Shown here one piece after another: positions 8,585 to 38,383 of a DNA stretch of 38,809 bases. The stretch comes from a bacterium (lineage in GTDB: Bacteria > Bacillota_I > Bacilli_A > RF39 > UBA660), in contig JAQXOT010000022.1 of NCBI GenBank assembly GCA_029099845.1, positions 1-38,809 of the forward strand. The letters are read 5' to 3'. Both the position numbers and the translations under genes were made by a program. Every line of letters starts with the position of its first letter. Positions within the stretch are counted from its first letter, which is position 1. The notes below the pieces were generated by a model, which saw only the letters and a program-made list of their open reading frames with translations, was not told the origin of the DNA and did not search any database.

Positions 8585-11002
8585 ATGATGCTACTTAGAA
8601 ATTCTTTAAGAAAAATTAAAAAATCCTTAGGAAGGTATTTATCACTATTAATTATTATTTTTATTGGGGTTTTGTTTTATTCGGGAATTATTGAAAGCGT
8701 TCCTAATATTAAAGATGTGCAAGCTAAGTATTATCAAGAAAGTAATTTAATGGATATAAAGCTTCTTAGTGATTTAGGATTTTTAGATGAAGATGTTGAT
8801 GCTATTGAAAAATTAGAAAATGTTGATTTAGCAGTGGGAAGTTATTCTAAGGATGTTTTAGTAGAAGATGATGTTGTTAGAATACATGCACTTTTAGATG
8901 AAATTAATAAGCCATATTTGATTGATGGAAGAATTCCGAGTAAAAAAAATGAGTGTTTGGCAGATGCAAATTTTTATAAAGTTGGCGATAAAATCAAAAT
9001 AAATGAGAAGTATACTGATGATTTGGAAAATTCAGTATATGAAGTTGTTGGGACGATATATTCACCAATATATACTAGTGATGATTATGGCAATAGTAGT
9101 ATTGGAAATGGTAAGTTGCACTCTTATATTTATGTTTTGAAAGATAATTTTAAGAGTCGTTATTATACTGAGGTTTTTATAGTGGCTTTAAAAAATAAGG
9201 AAAGTAAGCCATATTCAAATTCGTATAATAATAGTGTTTTAAAGGCTACTTCACAACTTAATAATTTAAAAGCAGAAAGACTTGATTTAAGAAAAAAAGA
9301 GATGGTTATGGCTAGTGGTGGAATGATTAGCTATGAGATGCTTGATGATTGCAACTGGTATGTTTTAAATAGAGACGATGTTGTTTCTTCTTATAGAATA
9401 CTTGAGAGTCAATATAATCAGGTTACAACTATTGCTAATGTTATACCTATATTTTTTATAGTAATTGTTGTGTTGATGACATCCAATACAATGAATAGAA
9501 TGATTATTGAAGAACGCGGTGAGATGGGAGCTTTATTGTCTCTTGGCTATTCAAATAAGCAGATTGTTTGGACTTATTTAATGTATGTTTTATCAGCTAC
9601 TTTATTGGGCTCTGTTTTGGGGTATTTTATTGGAACACTAACTTTACCAAGACTTGTTTATAACTGTTTTCTAATTAATTTTCCAGATATTACTTATAAG
9701 TTTAGGCTACCTTTATTTTTGGGGTGCGTACTTGTTTCTTGCTTGGTAATGATTATTGTGACTATATATGCAACACTCCGTGAATTAAAACAATGTCCAG
9801 CAAATTTACTTAGGCCGATTGCTCCTAAGATGGGAAAGACGATATTTATAGAAAGGTTTAGAAATATTTGGAATAGGTTATCATTTTCTTCTAAGGTGAC
9901 CCTACGTAATATTTCTAGATATAAAAAACGAGTTATTATGACTCTTTTAGGAACAGCTGGATGTACTTTTTTGATTATGATTGGTTTAGCTCTTAGAGAT
10001 AGTATTAATACTATTGGCAGTAAACAATATAATGATCTGTTTAAGTATGATAATCTTATCATTTTAAATGATAGTATTTCTTTAACTGATGATTTAGATA
10101 ATAAGGTTTTTACGGATTTAATTGATGATGTTCTTTATTTAAAACAAGAATCATTTAAAGCCGTTTTAGATGATAATAGTTTGGATATTTACCTTGTTGT
10201 TCCAGATGATGAGTATCTTTTTGAAAAGTATTATGCTTTGCCAGATGTTAATAATAAAGAAAGACTAAATCTTAGTAGTGATGGGGTTATTATTACTCCT
10301 AAATTACAGAAAAGATTTGATGTTTCGGTTGGAGATTATTTAGTTATTGAAAAAAGTGATAAGAAACAGTATAAGTTAAAAGTTAGTGGTGTAACAGAAA
10401 ACTATGTTGCTAATTATGTTTATATGAGTAAGGAGTTATATAATAAGACATTTAATGATGATCTTACTTATAATGCTTTAGTATCTAGCAATTTGATGTC
10501 AGAAGAGGAGATTGCGGTTAAATTATTAGATTCAGGAAAAGTACTTAGTGTTAATTTTTCTTCGGATTTAATACAAACAGCTAATAATATGATTAATGGC
10601 TTGAATGAAATTGTTGTATTATTAGTTATTATTTCTTCTATTTTAGCGTTTACAGTTTTATATAATTTAACGAATATTAATATTAGTGAGCGTACTCGAG
10701 AGATTGCAACATTGAAAGTTTTAGGGTTTAGAGATTTGGAGTCAAATGCTTATATTTATCGTGAAACACTAATAACAGTTATTGTTGGTATTATAATAGG
10801 TTTATTAATTACTCCACCAATTCATAGTTTGATTATGGATTTATTAGAGGTAGATACAATTGTTTTTTTACGACAAATTAAATTGAAAAGTTATGTATTT
10901 TCTTTTGCTTTGACTTTACTGTTTGCTATTATTATGCAATGGATAACGTATTTTAAAATAAAGAAAATTAATATGACTGAGTCATTGAAATCGGTTGAAT
11001 AA
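8585..11002 (+). CDS. ABC transporter permease with two FtsX domains
   Basis: This is the membrane subunit partnering the preceding ATPase. It has about eight membrane helices: one near the N terminus (about 15-36), a group of three at about 285-400, one at about 450-470 and three at about 685-795, with large extracytoplasmic domains in between. This is the duplicated-FtsX layout of long MacB-type or lipoprotein-type permeases. ERGEMGALLSLGYS and ERTREIATLKVLGF are the coupling helices typical of FtsX repeats. I chose ATG 8585 over a TTG at 8573. Substrate is unknown. Related pairs export peptides or lipids or regulate wall hydrolases; the next gene, possibly a papain-like peptidase, would fit the last idea. 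Confidence 0.9.
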   Translation: MMLLRNSLRKIKKSLGRYLSLLIIIFIGVLFYSGIIESVPNIKDVQAKYYQESNLMDIKLLSDLGFLDEDVDAIEKLENVDLAVGSYSKDVLVEDDVVRIHALLDEINKPYLIDGRIPSKKNECLADANFYKVGDKIKINEKYTDDLENSVYEVVGTIYSPIYTSDDYGNSSIGNGKLHSYIYVLKDNFKSRYYTEVFIVALKNKESKPYSNSYNNSVLKATSQLNNLKAERLDLRKKEMVMASGGMISYEMLDDCNWYVLNRDDVVSSYRILESQYNQVTTIANVIPIFFIVIVVLMTSNTMNRMIIEERGEMGALLSLGYSNKQIVWTYLMYVLSATLLGSVLGYFIGTLTLPRLVYNCFLINFPDITYKFRLPLFLGCVLVSCLVMIIVTIYATLRELKQCPANLLRPIAPKMGKTIFIERFRNIWNRLSFSSKVTLRNISRYKKRVIMTLLGTAGCTFLIMIGLALRDSINTIGSKQYNDLFKYDNLIILNDSISLTDDLDNKVFTDLIDDVLYLKQESFKAVLDDNSLDIYLVVPDDEYLFEKYYALPDVNNKERLNLSSDGVIITPKLQKRFDVSVGDYLVIEKSDKKQYKLKVSGVTENYVANYVYMSKELYNKTFNDDLTYNALVSSNLMSEEEIAVKLLDSGKVLSVNFSSDLIQTANNMINGLNEIVVLLVIISSILAFTVLYNLTNINISERTREIATLKVLGFRDLESNAYIYRETLITVIVGIIIGLLITPPIHSLIMDLLEVDTIVFLRQIKLKSYVFSFALTLLFAIIMQWITYFKIKKINMTESLKSVE

Positions 11003-18793: not shown

Positions 18794-18822
18794 TTGCTTA
18801 TTTAAAAAAAATATTGTACAAT
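18794..18822 (+). promoter_or_regulatory. sigma-A type promoter of the pilin-like gene
   Basis: TTGCTT, a 17-bp spacer and TACAAT (18817-18822) lie 25 bp before the ATG at 18848. Confidence 0.55.
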
Positions 18823-18847
18823 GTCTTTAGAATTGGAAGGTGATTGT

Positions 18848-20635
18848 ATGAAGAGATGTGATAAAAAAAGGAGTAGGCAATCTAAAGGCTTTACGATTGT
18901 TGAAATACTTGCTGTTGTTGTTATTTTAGGTATTCTTGCGGGAGTAGCGGTTCCAATGGTTTATCGTTATGTTGATAAAAGTAAAAAACAATCTTATGAA
19001 ACGATGGAGTCTACAGTATATGCTGGAGCTAAGAACTATGTTTTGGAACAGAATATGTCTTTAAATAGTTGTGCTTCTGGTTATACTGATATTGAGACAA
19101 TTGGAGATAATTTTCTTCAAGACTTGCAATATGTTGAAAGACTAGTTGATCCAAATGATAAGAGTAAGCAATGTGTATATAATGTGTATGGTTGTGAAGA
19201 AACGGAAGCAGCTGGTGATGCTTTAGCGACGTATAAATATAAGATTGAACTTAAGTGTTTAGATTATACTGGTTGTATTGTTTTCCATGAAGATGGTACA
19301 AGAGTAGATTGTGAGATGCCAAATGATGAAACTAGGGGCCCTGATTGTGGAGAACAAACACCAAGCATTAATAGTTGGAGTAATGTTGATAAGCTTGATA
19401 TAAAACTTCAATGTGTTGATACAACTAGTGGTGGTTGTGAAAAAAAAGTATATACATATACTTTTACGGAAGAAAAAGCTCATCAAGATGTTGTTATAAA
19501 AGATGTTTTTGGAAATTCGACCACTTGTTCAATTAATACTTATATTGATAGAACTGCACCTAGTAAGCCTGTAATAGATAATCCATATGAAAATGTGTGG
19601 GCTAATAAAAATTACAAGATAAAGGTTAGCTCTGTTGATAGTTTATCAGGCATTAAATATTTTGAATATAGGTATCCAAATTCAAGTAATGAAGCTGAAA
19701 GAAATTGGACACAATGGGAAAATTCTTCTAAGAGCAAGGGAGATTCTACACCATTTACAACAACTGATTTTTCTATTGAGAGAAATGAGGTCGTAGAAAT
19801 AAGAGCTTGTGACTATGCAGGAAATTGTTCTGAAAGCTCTCAAAGTATGATAAAAATTGATAAAACTAAACCAACTTGTACGATTGTGAAAAATATTGCT
19901 AATCCTAACGGATCAAATGGTTGGTATGTTTCTGATATTAATGTTTCTTTAGATACTAGTGATGTTGGGGGAAGTGCTATAGCTGGATATGATTTGACTA
20001 CTTCTACAACTCCTACGTATGCTTTTAATAAAACAGCTTCTCAAGGTGAAACTTCAGGGGTGACATATTATGGATATGTTAAAGACAATGCTAATAATGT
20101 TGGTACATGTAGTTCTGGAGTTATAAAGGTTGATAAAACACCTCCTAGTTTAACCTTTTCACTTTCAGGTAATGTTTCAACGGCAACATGCTCTGATTCG
20201 TTGAGTTCGGTTACGCAAGAAAAATATACTAAAAATTTAAGTTCTTCTTCACTAGTTCATTCTGTAACTTGTACTAATGGTGCTGGACTTACTTCAAGTA
20301 ATTCAAAAACATATAAATACAATGCTTGTATAACTGGTAGTCCTAATGAATGTGTTGGTTCTTATGTTCGCAAGTGGGTAGGAAATGCTACTAAAACTGC
20401 TTCTGGGTCATGTCTTTGTAGGGGAGCTAACACAGGGCACGGATATCCAGCTGCAACTGGCTGGTGTACAACTAGTGGTTGTGGCTGCCCTGGCGATACT
20501 TGGGTTATTCAAAATAATTGCTCAATAAAGTATTCTTGTTCAAGTGGTACTCTTAGTGGTTCTAGTTGTTATTCTACTGTTTGGGATAGTTGTGCAACTA
20601 CAACAAATACTTGTGTTGCTGGGTATACGGGATAA
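18848..20635 (+). CDS. large pseudopilin-like surface protein with Ig-like repeats
   Basis: This 595-aa protein begins with a class III (type IV pilin) signal: a basic leader, then KG^FTIVEILAVVVILGILAG, with Gly at -1, Phe at +1 and Glu at +5, so a prepilin peptidase should process it. After a pilin-like helix come several Ig-like/Big modules, each opening with a VDKT/IDRTAP-type phrase (IDRTAPSKPVID, IDKTKPTCTIV, VDKTPPSLTF). The last 110 or so residues are Cys-, Gly- and Ser-rich, including SGSCLCRGANTGHG and CTTSGCGCPGD. I chose ATG 18848 (GGAAGGTGAT upstream) over an ATG at 18821 inside the promoter. No pilus assembly genes are nearby. It is probably a surface adhesin or minor-pilin type protein. 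Confidence 0.8.
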   Translation: MKRCDKKRSRQSKGFTIVEILAVVVILGILAGVAVPMVYRYVDKSKKQSYETMESTVYAGAKNYVLEQNMSLNSCASGYTDIETIGDNFLQDLQYVERLVDPNDKSKQCVYNVYGCEETEAAGDALATYKYKIELKCLDYTGCIVFHEDGTRVDCEMPNDETRGPDCGEQTPSINSWSNVDKLDIKLQCVDTTSGGCEKKVYTYTFTEEKAHQDVVIKDVFGNSTTCSINTYIDRTAPSKPVIDNPYENVWANKNYKIKVSSVDSLSGIKYFEYRYPNSSNEAERNWTQWENSSKSKGDSTPFTTTDFSIERNEVVEIRACDYAGNCSESSQSMIKIDKTKPTCTIVKNIANPNGSNGWYVSDINVSLDTSDVGGSAIAGYDLTTSTTPTYAFNKTASQGETSGVTYYGYVKDNANNVGTCSSGVIKVDKTPPSLTFSLSGNVSTATCSDSLSSVTQEKYTKNLSSSSLVHSVTCTNGAGLTSSNSKTYKYNACITGSPNECVGSYVRKWVGNATKTASGSCLCRGANTGHGYPAATGWCTTSGCGCPGDTWVIQNNCSIKYSCSSGTLSGSSCYSTVWDSCATTTNTCVAGYTG

Positions 20636-34728: not shown

Positions 34729-34789
34729 ATTAGTGTATTAAATGGTATTAGGTAGTAGATATTATTTAATAAAATGTAAGGAGATATTT

Positions 34790-35476
34790 ATGGATTATTA
34801 TTATATAAGTTATGCATTAACAATTTTGGCGCTTATTATAACTACAGTGGCACAAATATATGTTAATTCGTCATATTCAAAGTATAAGAAAGTTAAAAAT
34901 AGAAGGGGCTTAACTGGAGCTGAGGCAGCACGAGCTGTTCTTGATAAAAATGGTTTACAAAATGTAAAAATTGGGATGGTAAGAGGTACATTATCAGATC
35001 ATTATGATCCGCGTACTAAGACTGTGAACTTATCTTCTGATATTTATAATGGAACAACGATTGCTGGTGTTAGTGTTGCTTGCCATGAGTGTGGCCATGC
35101 TATTCAAGATAAAGAAAATTACACTTTTATGCGAATTAGAAGCAGTTTAGTTCCAATCGTTAATTTTTCTTCAAAGCTTGGTTATTTTGCGATCCTTTTA
35201 GGAATTGTTTTTAGTTCCATTAATTTAATTTGGCTAGGTATTTTTGCAGAAATTGCAATTTTGTTATTTCAACTTGTTACATTGCCTGTTGAGTTTGATG
35301 CAAGCCGAAAGGCATTAAAGGAACTTGATGCGATGCAGATTCTTGATAATAGTGAGATGCGTGGTAGCAAAACAATGCTTAGATCTGCAGCACTAACATA
35401 TGTTGCGAGTGTTACTTCTACTATTATTGAAATATTTAGATTAATATTATTAGCAGGAAATAGAAATCGTGACTAA
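34790..35476 (+). CDS. YugP-type zinc metallopeptidase, membrane bound
   Basis: This 228-aa membrane protease of the Zn_peptidase_2 family has the zinc site VACHECGHAIQD (HExxGH). Membrane helices are near the N terminus (about 3-25) and at about 120-165, with another near 205-225; LPVEFDASRKALKEL (about 165-180) is the other family hallmark. It starts at ATG 34790 behind AAGGAG; an upstream ATG (34742) lies too close to the promoter. It is coupled to the next gene by an 8-nt overlap. Substrate is unknown. Confidence 0.93.
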   Translation: MDYYYISYALTILALIITTVAQIYVNSSYSKYKKVKNRRGLTGAEAARAVLDKNGLQNVKIGMVRGTLSDHYDPRTKTVNLSSDIYNGTTIAGVSVACHECGHAIQDKENYTFMRIRSSLVPIVNFSSKLGYFAILLGIVFSSINLIWLGIFAEIAILLFQLVTLPVEFDASRKALKELDAMQILDNSEMRGSKTMLRSAALTYVASVTSTIIEIFRLILLAGNRNRD

Positions 35477-35933: not shown

Positions 35934-36294
35934 TATATCTATTATTTAGTTTTTTTTTATGCAAGTTTTAAATAAAGTATTTATATGTTATTTTATTACC
36001 TGACTTTTGAAAAATATTAGGATGTTTATATTTTGATTTATAAGTAAGTAATTGATAATTTAGTAATTAGGATGATTATAATTTAAATTAATTGGTTGTT
36101 AATAAAAACTATTGTAGGAAAAATTAGGTAATGTCTATACTCTTAAAAAATAATTAAAATAGTATTTTAATTGTTTTTTTTATGTTATACTACTATTATA
36201 TATAATAATTGATAGTAGTTGAGGTATATTCATTTACATTTGATAGTAGTTGAGGTATATTCATTTACATTATTTATTAAAAGTGGAGGTATTT
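35934..36294. other. intergenic region with tandem repeat and promoter candidate
   Basis: This 361-bp gap holds a TGTTATACT extended -10 (36183-36191), the 31-bp tandem repeat at 36209-36270 and the GGAGGT site of the next gene. The rest is AT-rich with no gene or strong terminator seen. Confidence 0.55.
36209..36270 (+). repeat. two perfect 31-bp tandem copies upstream of the LXG-like gene
   Basis: Unit 1 is 36209-36239 and unit 2 is 36240-36270, with no differences. Each has GATAGTAGTTGAGGTATATT and CATTTACAT, including a GAGGT that mimics a ribosome binding site without a following start codon. They lie in the 5' untranslated region just before the real site and ATG at 36295. Confidence 0.9.
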
Positions 36295-36828
36295 ATGTCA
36301 AAAGTTATTAAGAGCGAAGTTCGTGAAATGAGTAGTTCGGCTTTAGTTTCTGCTTTGAAGCAAGATATATATGATTCTAAAAGATTAAAATTTGCGATAA
36401 GATCGTTTGTTAGTGGTTCAAAATGGAAATTGACTGGTCCTAATTATGATCTTGCTAGGGAATTAATGGAACAATATATTCCTATATTAGATAAAAGAGA
36501 AGAAGCAGCAGAACAGCTAGTTAGTGCAATTAAATCTGGCTGTAATAGTTTGGCTAGTTATATGTCACCTTTTGCTGTTTTAGATGAGGCAGAAAGAGCA
36601 GAATATGAGCAAAATTTAAGACAGGCACAAGAGACTTTAAATTATTTAAATTCGCTTAGTTGGTCTGATGAAGATTTTAATTTAATTAATTATTGGAGTA
36701 CTTATTTTTCTTGTAAAAAAATTATTGAAGAGTGTACTTTATATCTTGAAAAATTGGATGGTTTACCTGGGGCTGATGCTAGTGCTTATAGCCCGATTGA
36801 GGCAGCATCATCGCAATCTTTAATGTAG
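36295..36828 (+). CDS. LXG-like helical protein, 177 aa
   Basis: This is an unrecognised, soluble, helical protein. Residues 17-66 (ALVSALKQD, FVSGSKWKLTGPNYDLAREL, MEQYIPILDKREEAA) resemble the N-terminal LXG domain of type VII secretion substrates: a helix, then L-x-G (L46, G48) with a following NYD, then a helix ending in a Y-x-P-[IL]-L motif. It lacks any toxin domain. GGAGGT sets the start at ATG 36295; the frame extends upstream through the repeats but without a site. It heads a three-gene unit with a coiled-coil protein and a hydrolase. A secreted partner or adaptor role is inferred. Confidence 0.68.
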   Translation: MSKVIKSEVREMSSSALVSALKQDIYDSKRLKFAIRSFVSGSKWKLTGPNYDLARELMEQYIPILDKREEAAEQLVSAIKSGCNSLASYMSPFAVLDEAERAEYEQNLRQAQETLNYLNSLSWSDEDFNLINYWSTYFSCKKIIEECTLYLEKLDGLPGADASAYSPIEAASSQSLM

Positions 36829-36851
36829 GGTTAAAGGGGTGCTTTAATTTT

Positions 36852-37220
36852 ATGAATGAAGAAAAAGATACAAAGAATGAGTTACGAGAAAAGATTGGAC
36901 AACTTGAAGAGAAATTAGATATAGAAAATGGCAAATTGAAGAAAATTAATACAGTACAAGATTCTTTGATTAGTTTGAAAAAAAGTCTTGATAAATGTAC
37001 GGCAGTTTTATCTCGAGCGCTTGAACCTGGTGAGGCTAAAGAAAAGTTTAATAATTTATTAGACGATAATGCCTTAGATTTTAAAAAAACACATAGTAGT
37101 TTTGAAGAACAGGCAGAAGTCTTAAAACGAAAGGTTATAGATTTACAGGCTGAACGCGATAAGGCTATTCAGGATTATGAAGAATATTCTCGTGAAGAAG
37201 AAAAAGATAGTGAAAAGTAG
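36852..37220 (+). CDS. coiled-coil protein, possibly DUF5082-like partner
   Basis: This 122-aa protein is almost all charged helix: two long coils (about 8-50 and 78-115) joined by a LEPGEAKEKFNNLLDD segment. Size, topology and place between an LXG-like protein and a larger effector-like protein resemble the small helical partners (DUF5082/YwqH type) that accompany LXG proteins of type VII secretion. There is no signal peptide. AAAGGGG lies about 12 nt before ATG 36852. The family link rests on layout and is weak. Confidence 0.68.
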   Translation: MNEEKDTKNELREKIGQLEEKLDIENGKLKKINTVQDSLISLKKSLDKCTAVLSRALEPGEAKEKFNNLLDDNALDFKKTHSSFEEQAEVLKRKVIDLQAERDKAIQDYEEYSREEEKDSEK

Positions 37221-37249
37221 TTTTAATTATTTAATTAAGGAGGATTAAT

Positions 37250-38383
37250 ATGGCTGGTATACCGACTAGTGATGGGGGTTCAATTACTTATCATAATTAT
37301 AAAGGCAATGTTAGTTATTCAATTTATGTTCCTGCTAATGTTTCGGCTGATACACCAATATTTACATATACATATGGTTCAGGCAGAACGGATGATTGGT
37401 GGAGTAGATATCATAGTGCTGGAAACTATGGGATCTATGATGCTTTAATTGCTAATGGAAGTGATTCTATTGTTATTATGCCTACGATGGATTGGGGAGC
37501 TGATTGGGGCAAAAATACAATGGAAATAATTAATTCTGTGCGATCTGAATATGGAATTACTAATTTAAATGTATCAGGTAGTGGATTTAGTAAAGGTGGT
37601 TTTGGTGGTTTTGATATAGTAGCAGAAAATATTAGACAAAATCCTGATCTTGATCCACAAGTTGTGTTTTTTGTTGATGATTATTCTAGTACATATTACA
37701 TGGCACGAAATAAGTTAGGAAATGGTAAAGCAGAATTGTTTGCTGAAAATAATACGGTATTTTTTGCTTATGATCCTTATTGGAAAGGTACTGATAAATA
37801 TCAAGCTTATATCGATGCTGGTATCAATGTTATTAGAGTAGAACCAGCCAATTATGATCATGTTCAAATTAATGCTAATTTTTTTAAAAATGGTATTTAT
37901 GATTATATGGCAGGTGAACAATTGCCAGCTGATGGTTATGTATATAAAGTTTATAATAAAAATACTGGTAGCTGGGAGGAAATTGAATATAGTCAAATTG
38001 CTACAGTAGATAAATTATATGACTTTTATGGAATAGATAACTTACAAACAAAAATTAATACAATATTAGGCCTTGCTTCTTATGATATAAAATCTGATAA
38101 TGAAGTTGTTGCAGAGTATCTTAATAAAATTTTAAGTTGTATCAAAAGTTCTAATTTTTTAACAGCTAGTTTGGATTCTTTTGCGGGTTCTAGTGATACT
38201 AATGTGCCATCTCAAGTACCATATTGTGTTAGAAAACATTTTATAAGTGTGGCAAAAATGTTTACAAAATTAACTTCGCTTATGGATACGGTAGCTTCTA
38301 TTGATCCAAGTTATCAAGAGACAGATCAGAATCTAATGAATATGGTAAACGGAATAAATGATTCTTCCAATATTGAAAAATAA
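37250..38383 (+). CDS. alpha/beta hydrolase fused to a C-terminal helical domain
   Basis: This 377-aa protein has two parts. Residues 1-220 look like an esterase-type alpha/beta hydrolase: a TYTYGSGR oxyanion region, nucleophile elbow SGSGFSKGGFGG (S114 in GxSxG), acid candidates D143/D144 or D175, and H204 in NYDHVQIN. Residues 230-270 form a linker. The C-terminal 110 or so (about 266-377) are helical, with ILSCIKSSNFLTASL, VPYCVRKHF, FTKLTSLMDTV and a final DPSYQETDQNL like the end of WXG/LXG-type helical hairpins. No signal peptide is present, so export, if any, would need a type VII-like route. Strong AAGGAGG precedes ATG 37250. Substrate unknown. Confidence 0.75.
   Translation: MAGIPTSDGGSITYHNYKGNVSYSIYVPANVSADTPIFTYTYGSGRTDDWWSRYHSAGNYGIYDALIANGSDSIVIMPTMDWGADWGKNTMEIINSVRSEYGITNLNVSGSGFSKGGFGGFDIVAENIRQNPDLDPQVVFFVDDYSSTYYMARNKLGNGKAELFAENNTVFFAYDPYWKGTDKYQAYIDAGINVIRVEPANYDHVQINANFFKNGIYDYMAGEQLPADGYVYKVYNKNTGSWEEIEYSQIATVDKLYDFYGIDNLQTKINTILGLASYDIKSDNEVVAEYLNKILSCIKSSNFLTASLDSFAGSSDTNVPSQVPYCVRKHFISVAKMFTKLTSLMDTVASIDPSYQETDQNLMNMVNGINDSSNIEK

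What the first reader, a model, noticed from the sequence alone, without database searches (positions are those of the whole stretch)
36295..38383. Possible new LXG-like secretion cassette with an alpha/beta hydrolase
The operon encodes an LXG-like protein (KLTGPNYD at 45-52), a small coiled-coil partner and a hydrolase (S114, H204) carrying a C-terminal helical domain. The order matches small-partner-plus-effector modules of type VII secretion, but here the enzyme is N-terminal and the putative targeting domain C-terminal, and the LXG-like part is a separate protein. This would be an undescribed architecture.
Basis: inference. Interest (0 to 1): 0.7.

Follow-up and report, generated by a model that had tools for sequence, protein, structure and literature searches.

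The report
Split, reversed type VII secretion cassette
A small operon in an uncultured Bacilli relative encodes an esterase whose tail, together with a separate helper protein, appears to form the two halves of a type VII secretion address label that is normally carried differently, suggesting a new way such bacteria package exported enzymes.

Summary
The three ORFs, the LTG motif (P0001 46-48) and S114/H204 are real. The type VII (T7SSb) link is well supported by comparative evidence: the genome has a full-length EssC and WXG100 proteins; in related genera the same trio (esterase with C-terminal helical domain, LXG-like protein, coiled-coil protein) sits directly upstream of essC; and in other relatives the esterase, its C-terminal domain and the LXG-like domain form one natural polypeptide. 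The C-terminal domain is a WXG100/Lap1-like hairpin with an aligned PhixxxD export motif; the LXG-like partner is remotely related to Pfam LXG and keeps F...S...LxG. I read the cassette as a T7SSb substrate whose composite signal (LxG plus PhixxxD) is split between two proteins, with the PhixxxD half fused behind an esterase of the CE1/esterase-D fold. The claim that enzyme-first order is undescribed is wrong: S. aureus TslA (2023) has it. What appears new is the separate, toxin-less LXG-like protein plus a Lap-like domain fused to the enzyme, and one LXG/coiled-coil pair detected for three enzyme genes. Secretion, complex formation, substrate and toxicity are inferred, not shown.

The parts
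36295..36828 (+). P0001, LXG-like protein without a toxin domain, 177 aa
36430..36438 (+). L46-T47-G48, the LxG motif (F38...S42...L46xG48 pattern conserved in the family)
36852..37220 (+). P0002, coiled-coil partner, 122 aa; relatives lie directly upstream of essC in three genomes
37250..38383 (+). P0003, esterase with C-terminal helical hairpin, 377 aa
37250..38047 (+). alpha/beta-hydrolase domain of P0003, about residues 1-266, CE1 feruloyl esterase / esterase D type fold
37589..37591 (+). S114, predicted nucleophile in GFSKG, invariant in 17 relatives
37859..37861 (+). H204, predicted catalytic histidine, invariant in 17 relatives
38078..38359 (+). Lap1/WXG100-like helical hairpin, residues 277-370 of P0003
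38312..38326 (+). Y355-QET-D359, YxxxD (PhixxxD) export-type motif in the second helix
36209..36271 (+). perfect 31-base tandem duplication just upstream of the cassette, containing a promoter-like site (36233-36261); promoter role not shown

Best explanation
The operon most likely encodes a T7SSb export substrate and its partners. P0003 is an esterase with a Ser-(Asp/Glu)-His active site followed by a Lap1/WXG100-like hairpin that carries the PhixxxD half of a composite type VII signal (YQETD 355-359). P0001 is a toxin-less LXG-like protein that carries the LxG half (L46-G48). P0002 is a coiled-coil partner in the role of a second Lap. The three would assemble in the cytoplasm, the LxG turn of P0001 would pack beside the PhixxxD helix of P0003, and EssC would recognise the joint signal and export the enzyme. 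Shown here by sequence: homology, gene neighbourhood, natural fusions, motif conservation, conserved active site. Inferred: complex formation, export, and the enzyme's target. For the target I favour a cell-envelope or glycan ester, with antibacterial use somewhat more likely than nutrient use.
For: Own genome: EssC TIGR03928 1001 bits full length and WXG100 proteins, one over cut-off, beside other T7-type loci. Neighbourhood: the trio directly upstream of EssC in G362:C10 and G270:C7, and esterase-hairpin genes within 5 kb of an EssC-WXG cluster in G363:C24. The coiled-coil gene also precedes EssC in G272. Homology of the window genes to those: P0001 profile vs partners hhalign 99.3% over 175 columns, P0002 97.5% over 96 columns. 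Fusions esterase-hairpin-LXG in G270:C1 and G272:C44/C12, and glucosaminidase-hairpin-LXG-LysM in G272:C24. LXG relation: PF04740 subthreshold but in register, 19-197 vs 17-194 E 0.0025, and 28-133 vs 26-134 E 0.0016. Hairpin: TIGR04197 E 0.049 below cut-off; aligned [YF]xxxD in 12 of 15 and [IV]xxxD in the other 3. AlphaFold: hairpin with the motif in helix 2, LxG in a turn between two long helices of the fused relative. Published composite LxG/PhixxxD signal of TelA-LapA3 (PMC13355648). All 8 cassette-bearing genomes have EssC against 140 of 291 in the family. None of the three has an N-terminal hydrophobic segment.
Against: No Pfam or NCBIfam model is reached above its cut-off by any of the three window proteins. 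The cassette in the window is not itself next to essC (contig C22 vs C8). The hairpin model has low confidence (pLDDT about 45-66) and the helical fold search is uninformative. The relative in G001:C82 lacks the PhixxxD motif. No immunity gene was identified beside the cassette. No complex prediction was possible. Co-occurrence with EssC comes from few genera.
Confidence: 0.78

Rival explanations
1. The cassette is exported by the T7SS as proposed, but the enzyme is not an antibacterial toxin: it is a surface or secreted carbohydrate/envelope esterase used for feeding or for the cell's own wall.
For: Best structural matches are CE1 feruloyl and acetyl xylan esterases; several relatives carry long linkers with a hydrophobic C-terminal segment or LysM, i.e. 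apparently cell-attached enzymes; no immunity gene was recognised next to the cassette.
Against: The enzyme part diverges faster than the hairpin in most pairs (19-26% vs 30-44% identity) and the same module carries a glucosaminidase elsewhere, a polymorphic-toxin-like pattern; TslA, the nearest functional precedent, is antibacterial (PMC10730906).
Confidence: 0.4
2. A cytoplasmic esterase with two helical adaptor proteins, not exported at all; LxG and YxxxD are chance motifs in helical proteins.
For: No model above cut-off; no secretion data; window cassette is unlinked to essC.
Against: Relatives of all three genes next to essC, fusions with LysM or hydrophobic tails and a glucosaminidase, family-wide conservation of both motifs at aligned positions.
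Confidence: 0.1
3. P0001 and P0002 are machinery-side adaptors of a T7SS variant and not part of the exported complex; they hand several hairpin-tagged enzymes to EssC.
For: Only one P0001/P0002 pair was detected in the genome but three esterase-hairpin genes; coiled-coil relatives precede essC in three genomes.
Against: In G270 and G272 the LXG-like part is fused to the enzyme itself, so it would travel with it.
Confidence: 0.25

Closest known systems
TslA-TlaA1-TlaA2 of Staphylococcus aureus (Tsl1 family, PMC10730906)
   Same: Alpha/beta-hydrolase enzyme first, helical type VII targeting domain last, two small helical partners encoded in the same cluster.
   Different: In TslA the LXG-like domain itself is the C-terminus; here the enzyme ends in a Lap1-like hairpin and the LXG-like part is a separate protein. 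TslA was modelled on a Yarrowia lipase, P0003 matches CE1/esterase D best. TlaA proteins lack a clear F/YxxxD motif; here it is present. No TilA-like gene recognised here.
LXG toxin - Lap1 (DUF3130/TIGR04197) - Lap2 (DUF3958) complexes such as TelC and TelD (PMC9600955)
   Same: LxG on one chain and FxxxD on a small hairpin partner, plus a second helical partner.
   Different: The cargo enzyme is joined to the Lap1-like hairpin instead of the LXG domain; the LXG-like protein has no toxin domain; no family model is reached above cut-off.
TelA-LapA3-LapA4 and EsxA composite signal (discussed in PMC13355648)
   Same: Composite WxG/LxG plus PhixxxD signal.
   Different: Here inferred from sequence only, and divided between an enzyme's tail and a cargo-free LXG-like protein.
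T7SSc-T7SSj variants (PMC11217815)
   Same: EssC with a small ubiquitin-like type ORF and WXG100 proteins; reverse lipases are mentioned.
   Different: The substrate section read here does not describe the split arrangement; this lineage was not checked against the paper's subtype definitions.

Membership tests
LXG domain (PF04740) | score above Pfam gathering cut-off | tested here: not met
   P0001 has no hit; relatives reach 18.2 and 18.8 bits against 26.5; no PF04740 in the own genome (B. subtilis control positive)
LXG domain (PF04740) | LxG in the turn between two long helices | tested here: met
   F...S...LxG conserved in 15 sequences; AlphaFold of the fused relative puts LxG at 177-179 between helices 147-176 and 180-221
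LXG polymorphic toxin | N-terminal LXG fused to a C-terminal toxin domain | tested here: not met
   P0001 ends after the helical part; in the fusions the enzyme is N-terminal
Lap1 (DUF3130/TIGR04197) | score above NCBIfam cut-off | tested here: not met
   14.2 bits against 26, model positions 53-84 of 85; the genome search with this model rang in no control
[quoted passage not shown]
   YQETD 355-359 in helix 322-367; [YF]xxxD in 12 of 15 relatives
Lap1 (DUF3130/TIGR04197) | DxxTxxxGN motif in the turn | tested here: not met
   the turn has a different conserved pattern, SSDTNVPS in P0003
TslA/Tsl1 reverse substrates | N-terminal hydrolase and C-terminal helical targeting domain | tested here: met
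   domain order of the model; that the helical part targets is inferred
TslA/Tsl1 reverse substrates | C-terminal domain is itself the LXG-like domain | tested here: not met
   P0003 ends in the Lap1-like hairpin; the LXG-like part is P0001
TslA/Tsl1 reverse substrates | sequence homology to TslA | not tested
   TslA sequence was not fetched
T7SSb | EssC ATPase | tested here: met
   TIGR03928 1001.5 bits, cut-off 778.4
T7SSb | EsxA-type WXG100 protein | tested here: met
   G000:C18:7524-7727, 29.2 bits, over cut-off
T7SSb | EsaB/YukD beside essC | tested here: inconclusive
   84-aa ORF directly after essC, conserved in the genus, but no Pfam hit
T7SSb | EssA, EssB, EsaA membrane proteins | not tested
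CE1 / esterase D carboxylesterase fold | alpha/beta-hydrolase fold with Ser-acid-His | tested here: met
   8bbp_B Z 14.1, rmsd 3.3, 197 aligned; esterase D E 1.9e-7; LC-Est1C by profile E 7.9e-5; S and H invariant

The most novel reading that the evidence does not exclude
The composite type VII signal is split and shared: one toxin-less LXG-like protein and one coiled-coil protein act in trans as a common export adaptor for several enzymes (three in this genome), each tagged at its C-terminus with a Lap1-like PhixxxD hairpin, while relatives have fused the same parts into single chains with different enzymes.
Probability: 0.45. Interest if true: 0.75.

Novelty: new variant of a known kind. Interest (0 to 1): 0.6.

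Why it matters
Known T7SSb substrates build their address from an LxG on the cargo protein and a PhixxxD on a small partner. Here the cargo enzyme appears to carry the PhixxxD half at its C-terminus and a cargo-free LXG-like protein the other half, with single-chain versions in relatives. That offers a natural test of which part EssC reads and of export from the C-terminal end, and a sequence tag for finding type VII substrates that LXG and WXG100 models miss in a large uncultured lineage with small genomes, where about half the sampled genomes carry EssC.

Tried and rejected
The P0001 hit in G139 is an SMC-type coiled coil and was discarded as chance. P0001 found nothing in viral contigs and P0003 nothing in plasmids. 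PHROGs and PADLOC gave only weak coiled-coil type matches, so no phage or defence reading. TIGR04197 over 120 class genomes rang nowhere, controls included, so it says nothing about absence. PF04740 at class and phylum level gave only sub-cut-off hits, so no LXG seed set could be harvested for a direct profile comparison. PDB profile searches with the LXG-like and coiled-coil alignments gave only seemingly unrelated helical proteins. Structure search of the helical fusion model was uninformative: top rows are designed helical bundles with Z under about 13, and no LXG or WXG100 structure is among the rows shown. Weak hairpin matches in G073, G280, G319 and others (E about 0.001-0.008) were not counted as members. 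The idea that P0003 resembles TslA in enzyme type was dropped in favour of CE1/esterase D. The shuffle test of the YxxxD motif was made on segments chosen around the motif, so it is not used as a probability.

Full report
Observation. They are real genes: each has relatives elsewhere, the trio is kept together in another genome of the genus in a different order (esterase, LXG-like, coiled coil in G002:C35), and the LXG-like and esterase genes are adjacent in G001:C82. In the window and in G002 a similar membrane metalloprotease-type gene lies upstream (window 34742-35476, L016 6420-7112), so the locus looks syntenic.

Is there a type VII system? Yes. The window's genome has one full-length EssC (1001 bits, cut-off 778) on contig C8, followed by an 84-aa ORF at the place of EsaB and two hairpin-sized ORFs of 75 and 72 aa that are conserved in the genus. 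WXG100 proteins occur on contigs C18 and C2, one above the Pfam cut-off. Next to them are a cluster of four small WXG100-size ORFs with a larger protein that looks like a CHAP-type hydrolase, and a cluster with a DUF4176-like ORF and a very large protein (these names are my reading, not tested). So the organism appears to use its T7SS for other substrates as well.

What links this cassette to it? First, neighbourhood. A profile of the P0003 C-terminal domain found the same domain behind other esterase-like proteins in other genera. In G362:C10 the order is two WXG100-like genes, esterase-hairpin, LXG-like, coiled coil, EssC, EsaB-type ORF. In G270:C7 it is LXG-like, coiled coil, two WXG100-type genes, esterase-hairpin, LXG-like, coiled coil, EssC, EsaB-type ORF. 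In G363:C24 two esterase-hairpin genes lie within 5 kb of an EssC-WXG100 cluster. In G272 a coiled-coil gene directly precedes EssC. Three of 13 loci outside the genus within about 5 kb of EssC would be unlikely by chance (binomial about 0.001 to 0.006 for p of 0.015 to 0.03), with the caveat that the loci are related and the test was made afterwards. The window's P0001 and P0002 are homologous to the genes in those clusters (hhalign 99.3% over 175 columns and 97.5% over 96 columns; reverse hmmsearch E 3.5e-30 and 4.4e-20). All eight genomes with the cassette or its parts have EssC, against 140 of 291 sampled in the family (hypergeometric 0.003, few genera).

Second, natural fusions. In G270:C1 one 718-aa protein holds esterase, hairpin and LXG-like domain. 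In G272, 892-aa and 812-aa proteins do the same and add a long linker with a hydrophobic C-terminal stretch, and a 701-aa protein replaces the esterase by a glucosaminidase (PF01832, E 2.5e-18) and ends in LysM. The hairpin and the LXG-like protein thus look like two parts of one functional unit that is split in the window.

What are the parts? The LXG-like protein: Pfam LXG is matched below cut-off but in register by relatives (E 0.0025 over 19-197 vs 17-194; E 0.0016 over 28-133 vs 26-134); F...S...LxG is nearly invariant over 15 sequences, and the predicted fold of the fused relative has LxG in a turn between two long helices. I call it LXG-like, not LXG, because no cut-off is reached. The hairpin: helices 284-299 and 322-367 in P0003 (low confidence), a weak TIGR04197 match, and an aligned [YF]xxxD in 12 of 15 relatives with [IV]xxxD in the other three. 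PhixxxD on a Lap and LxG on the LXG chain are reported to form one composite signal in TelA-LapA3, as in EsxA (PMC13355648), and FxxxD of Lap1 is needed for export (PMC9600955). The enzyme: an alpha/beta hydrolase whose best matches are CE1 feruloyl esterases and esterase D (Z 14.1, rmsd 3.3, 197 aligned; profile E 7.9e-5 to LC-Est1C). S114 and H204 are invariant in 17 relatives and the acid column around D143/D144 is D or E. None of the three has an N-terminal hydrophobic segment, unlike the membrane-anchored esterases of G116, which fits a non-Sec route.

How it most likely works. P0001, P0002 and P0003 assemble; LxG of P0001 and YQETD of P0003 make the signal; EssC exports the complex. Assembly and export are inferred. 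The enzyme domain diverges faster than the hairpin in most pairs (19-26% against 30-44%), and in G001:C38 a 63%-identical enzyme has a different C-terminus with a 99-aa gene behind it. This swapping resembles polymorphic toxins, but no immunity gene was recognised, and a surface or nutritional esterase is a serious alternative. Only one P0001/P0002 pair was detected in the genome but three esterase-hairpin genes (C22, C14, C17), which suggests a shared adaptor; the assembly is about 91% complete, so a missing second pair is possible.

Comparison. TslA of S. aureus already shows enzyme-first order with C-terminal helical targeting and two partners (PMC10730906), and reverse lipases occur beside other T7SS variants (PMC11217815). 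In the papers I could search I found no description of an enzyme fused to a Lap1-like hairpin with a separate toxin-less LXG-like protein; the library lacks most subscription journals. The finding is therefore rated a new variant of a known kind.

Limits. No experiment, no complex prediction, a low-confidence hairpin model, sub-cut-off family scores, and a window cassette that is not itself beside essC. The organism is known only as a relative of uncultured Bacilli MAGs.

Noticed in passing
window 36209-36271: Perfect two-copy tandem repeat of 31 bases immediately upstream of the cassette, with a promoter-like site; could be a recent duplication of a control region.
   Followed up: partly
L014 6827-8442 (G001:C38): Esterase 63% identical to the P0003 enzyme but with an unrelated helical C-terminus and a 99-aa gene directly behind: a natural domain swap.
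   Followed up: partly
L012 7344-8429 and L013 7092-8270 (own genome, C14 and C17): Two more esterase-hairpin genes without an LXG-like or coiled-coil neighbour.
   Followed up: partly
L078 4880-6985 (G272:C24): 701-aa protein with glucosaminidase, Lap1-like hairpin, LXG-like domain, linker and LysM.
   Followed up: partly
L054 2001-4751 (G270:C7): 916-aa protein with esterase, hairpin, glucosaminidase and a hydrophobic C-terminal segment beside essC.
   Followed up: partly
L080 4584-6094 (G272:C41): Esterase-type gene read as two ORFs before LXG-like and coiled-coil genes; looks interrupted.
   Followed up: no
L095 4816-7245 (own genome C18): Four small WXG100-size ORFs beside a 386-aa protein that looks like a CHAP-type hydrolase; probably another type VII substrate locus.
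   Followed up: no
L096 4848-10499 (own genome C2): WXG100-size ORFs, a DUF4176-like ORF and a protein of more than 1300 aa: probable further type VII substrate locus.
   Followed up: no
L017 2012-8750 (G116:C7): Run of four membrane-anchored proteins with esterase-like C-termini, beside a fifth related protein (8762-10486) that looks like a beta-lactamase-type enzyme.
   Followed up: no
window 18821-20635: 604-aa protein with a pilin-like N-terminal helix followed by a long cysteine-rich part.
   Followed up: no
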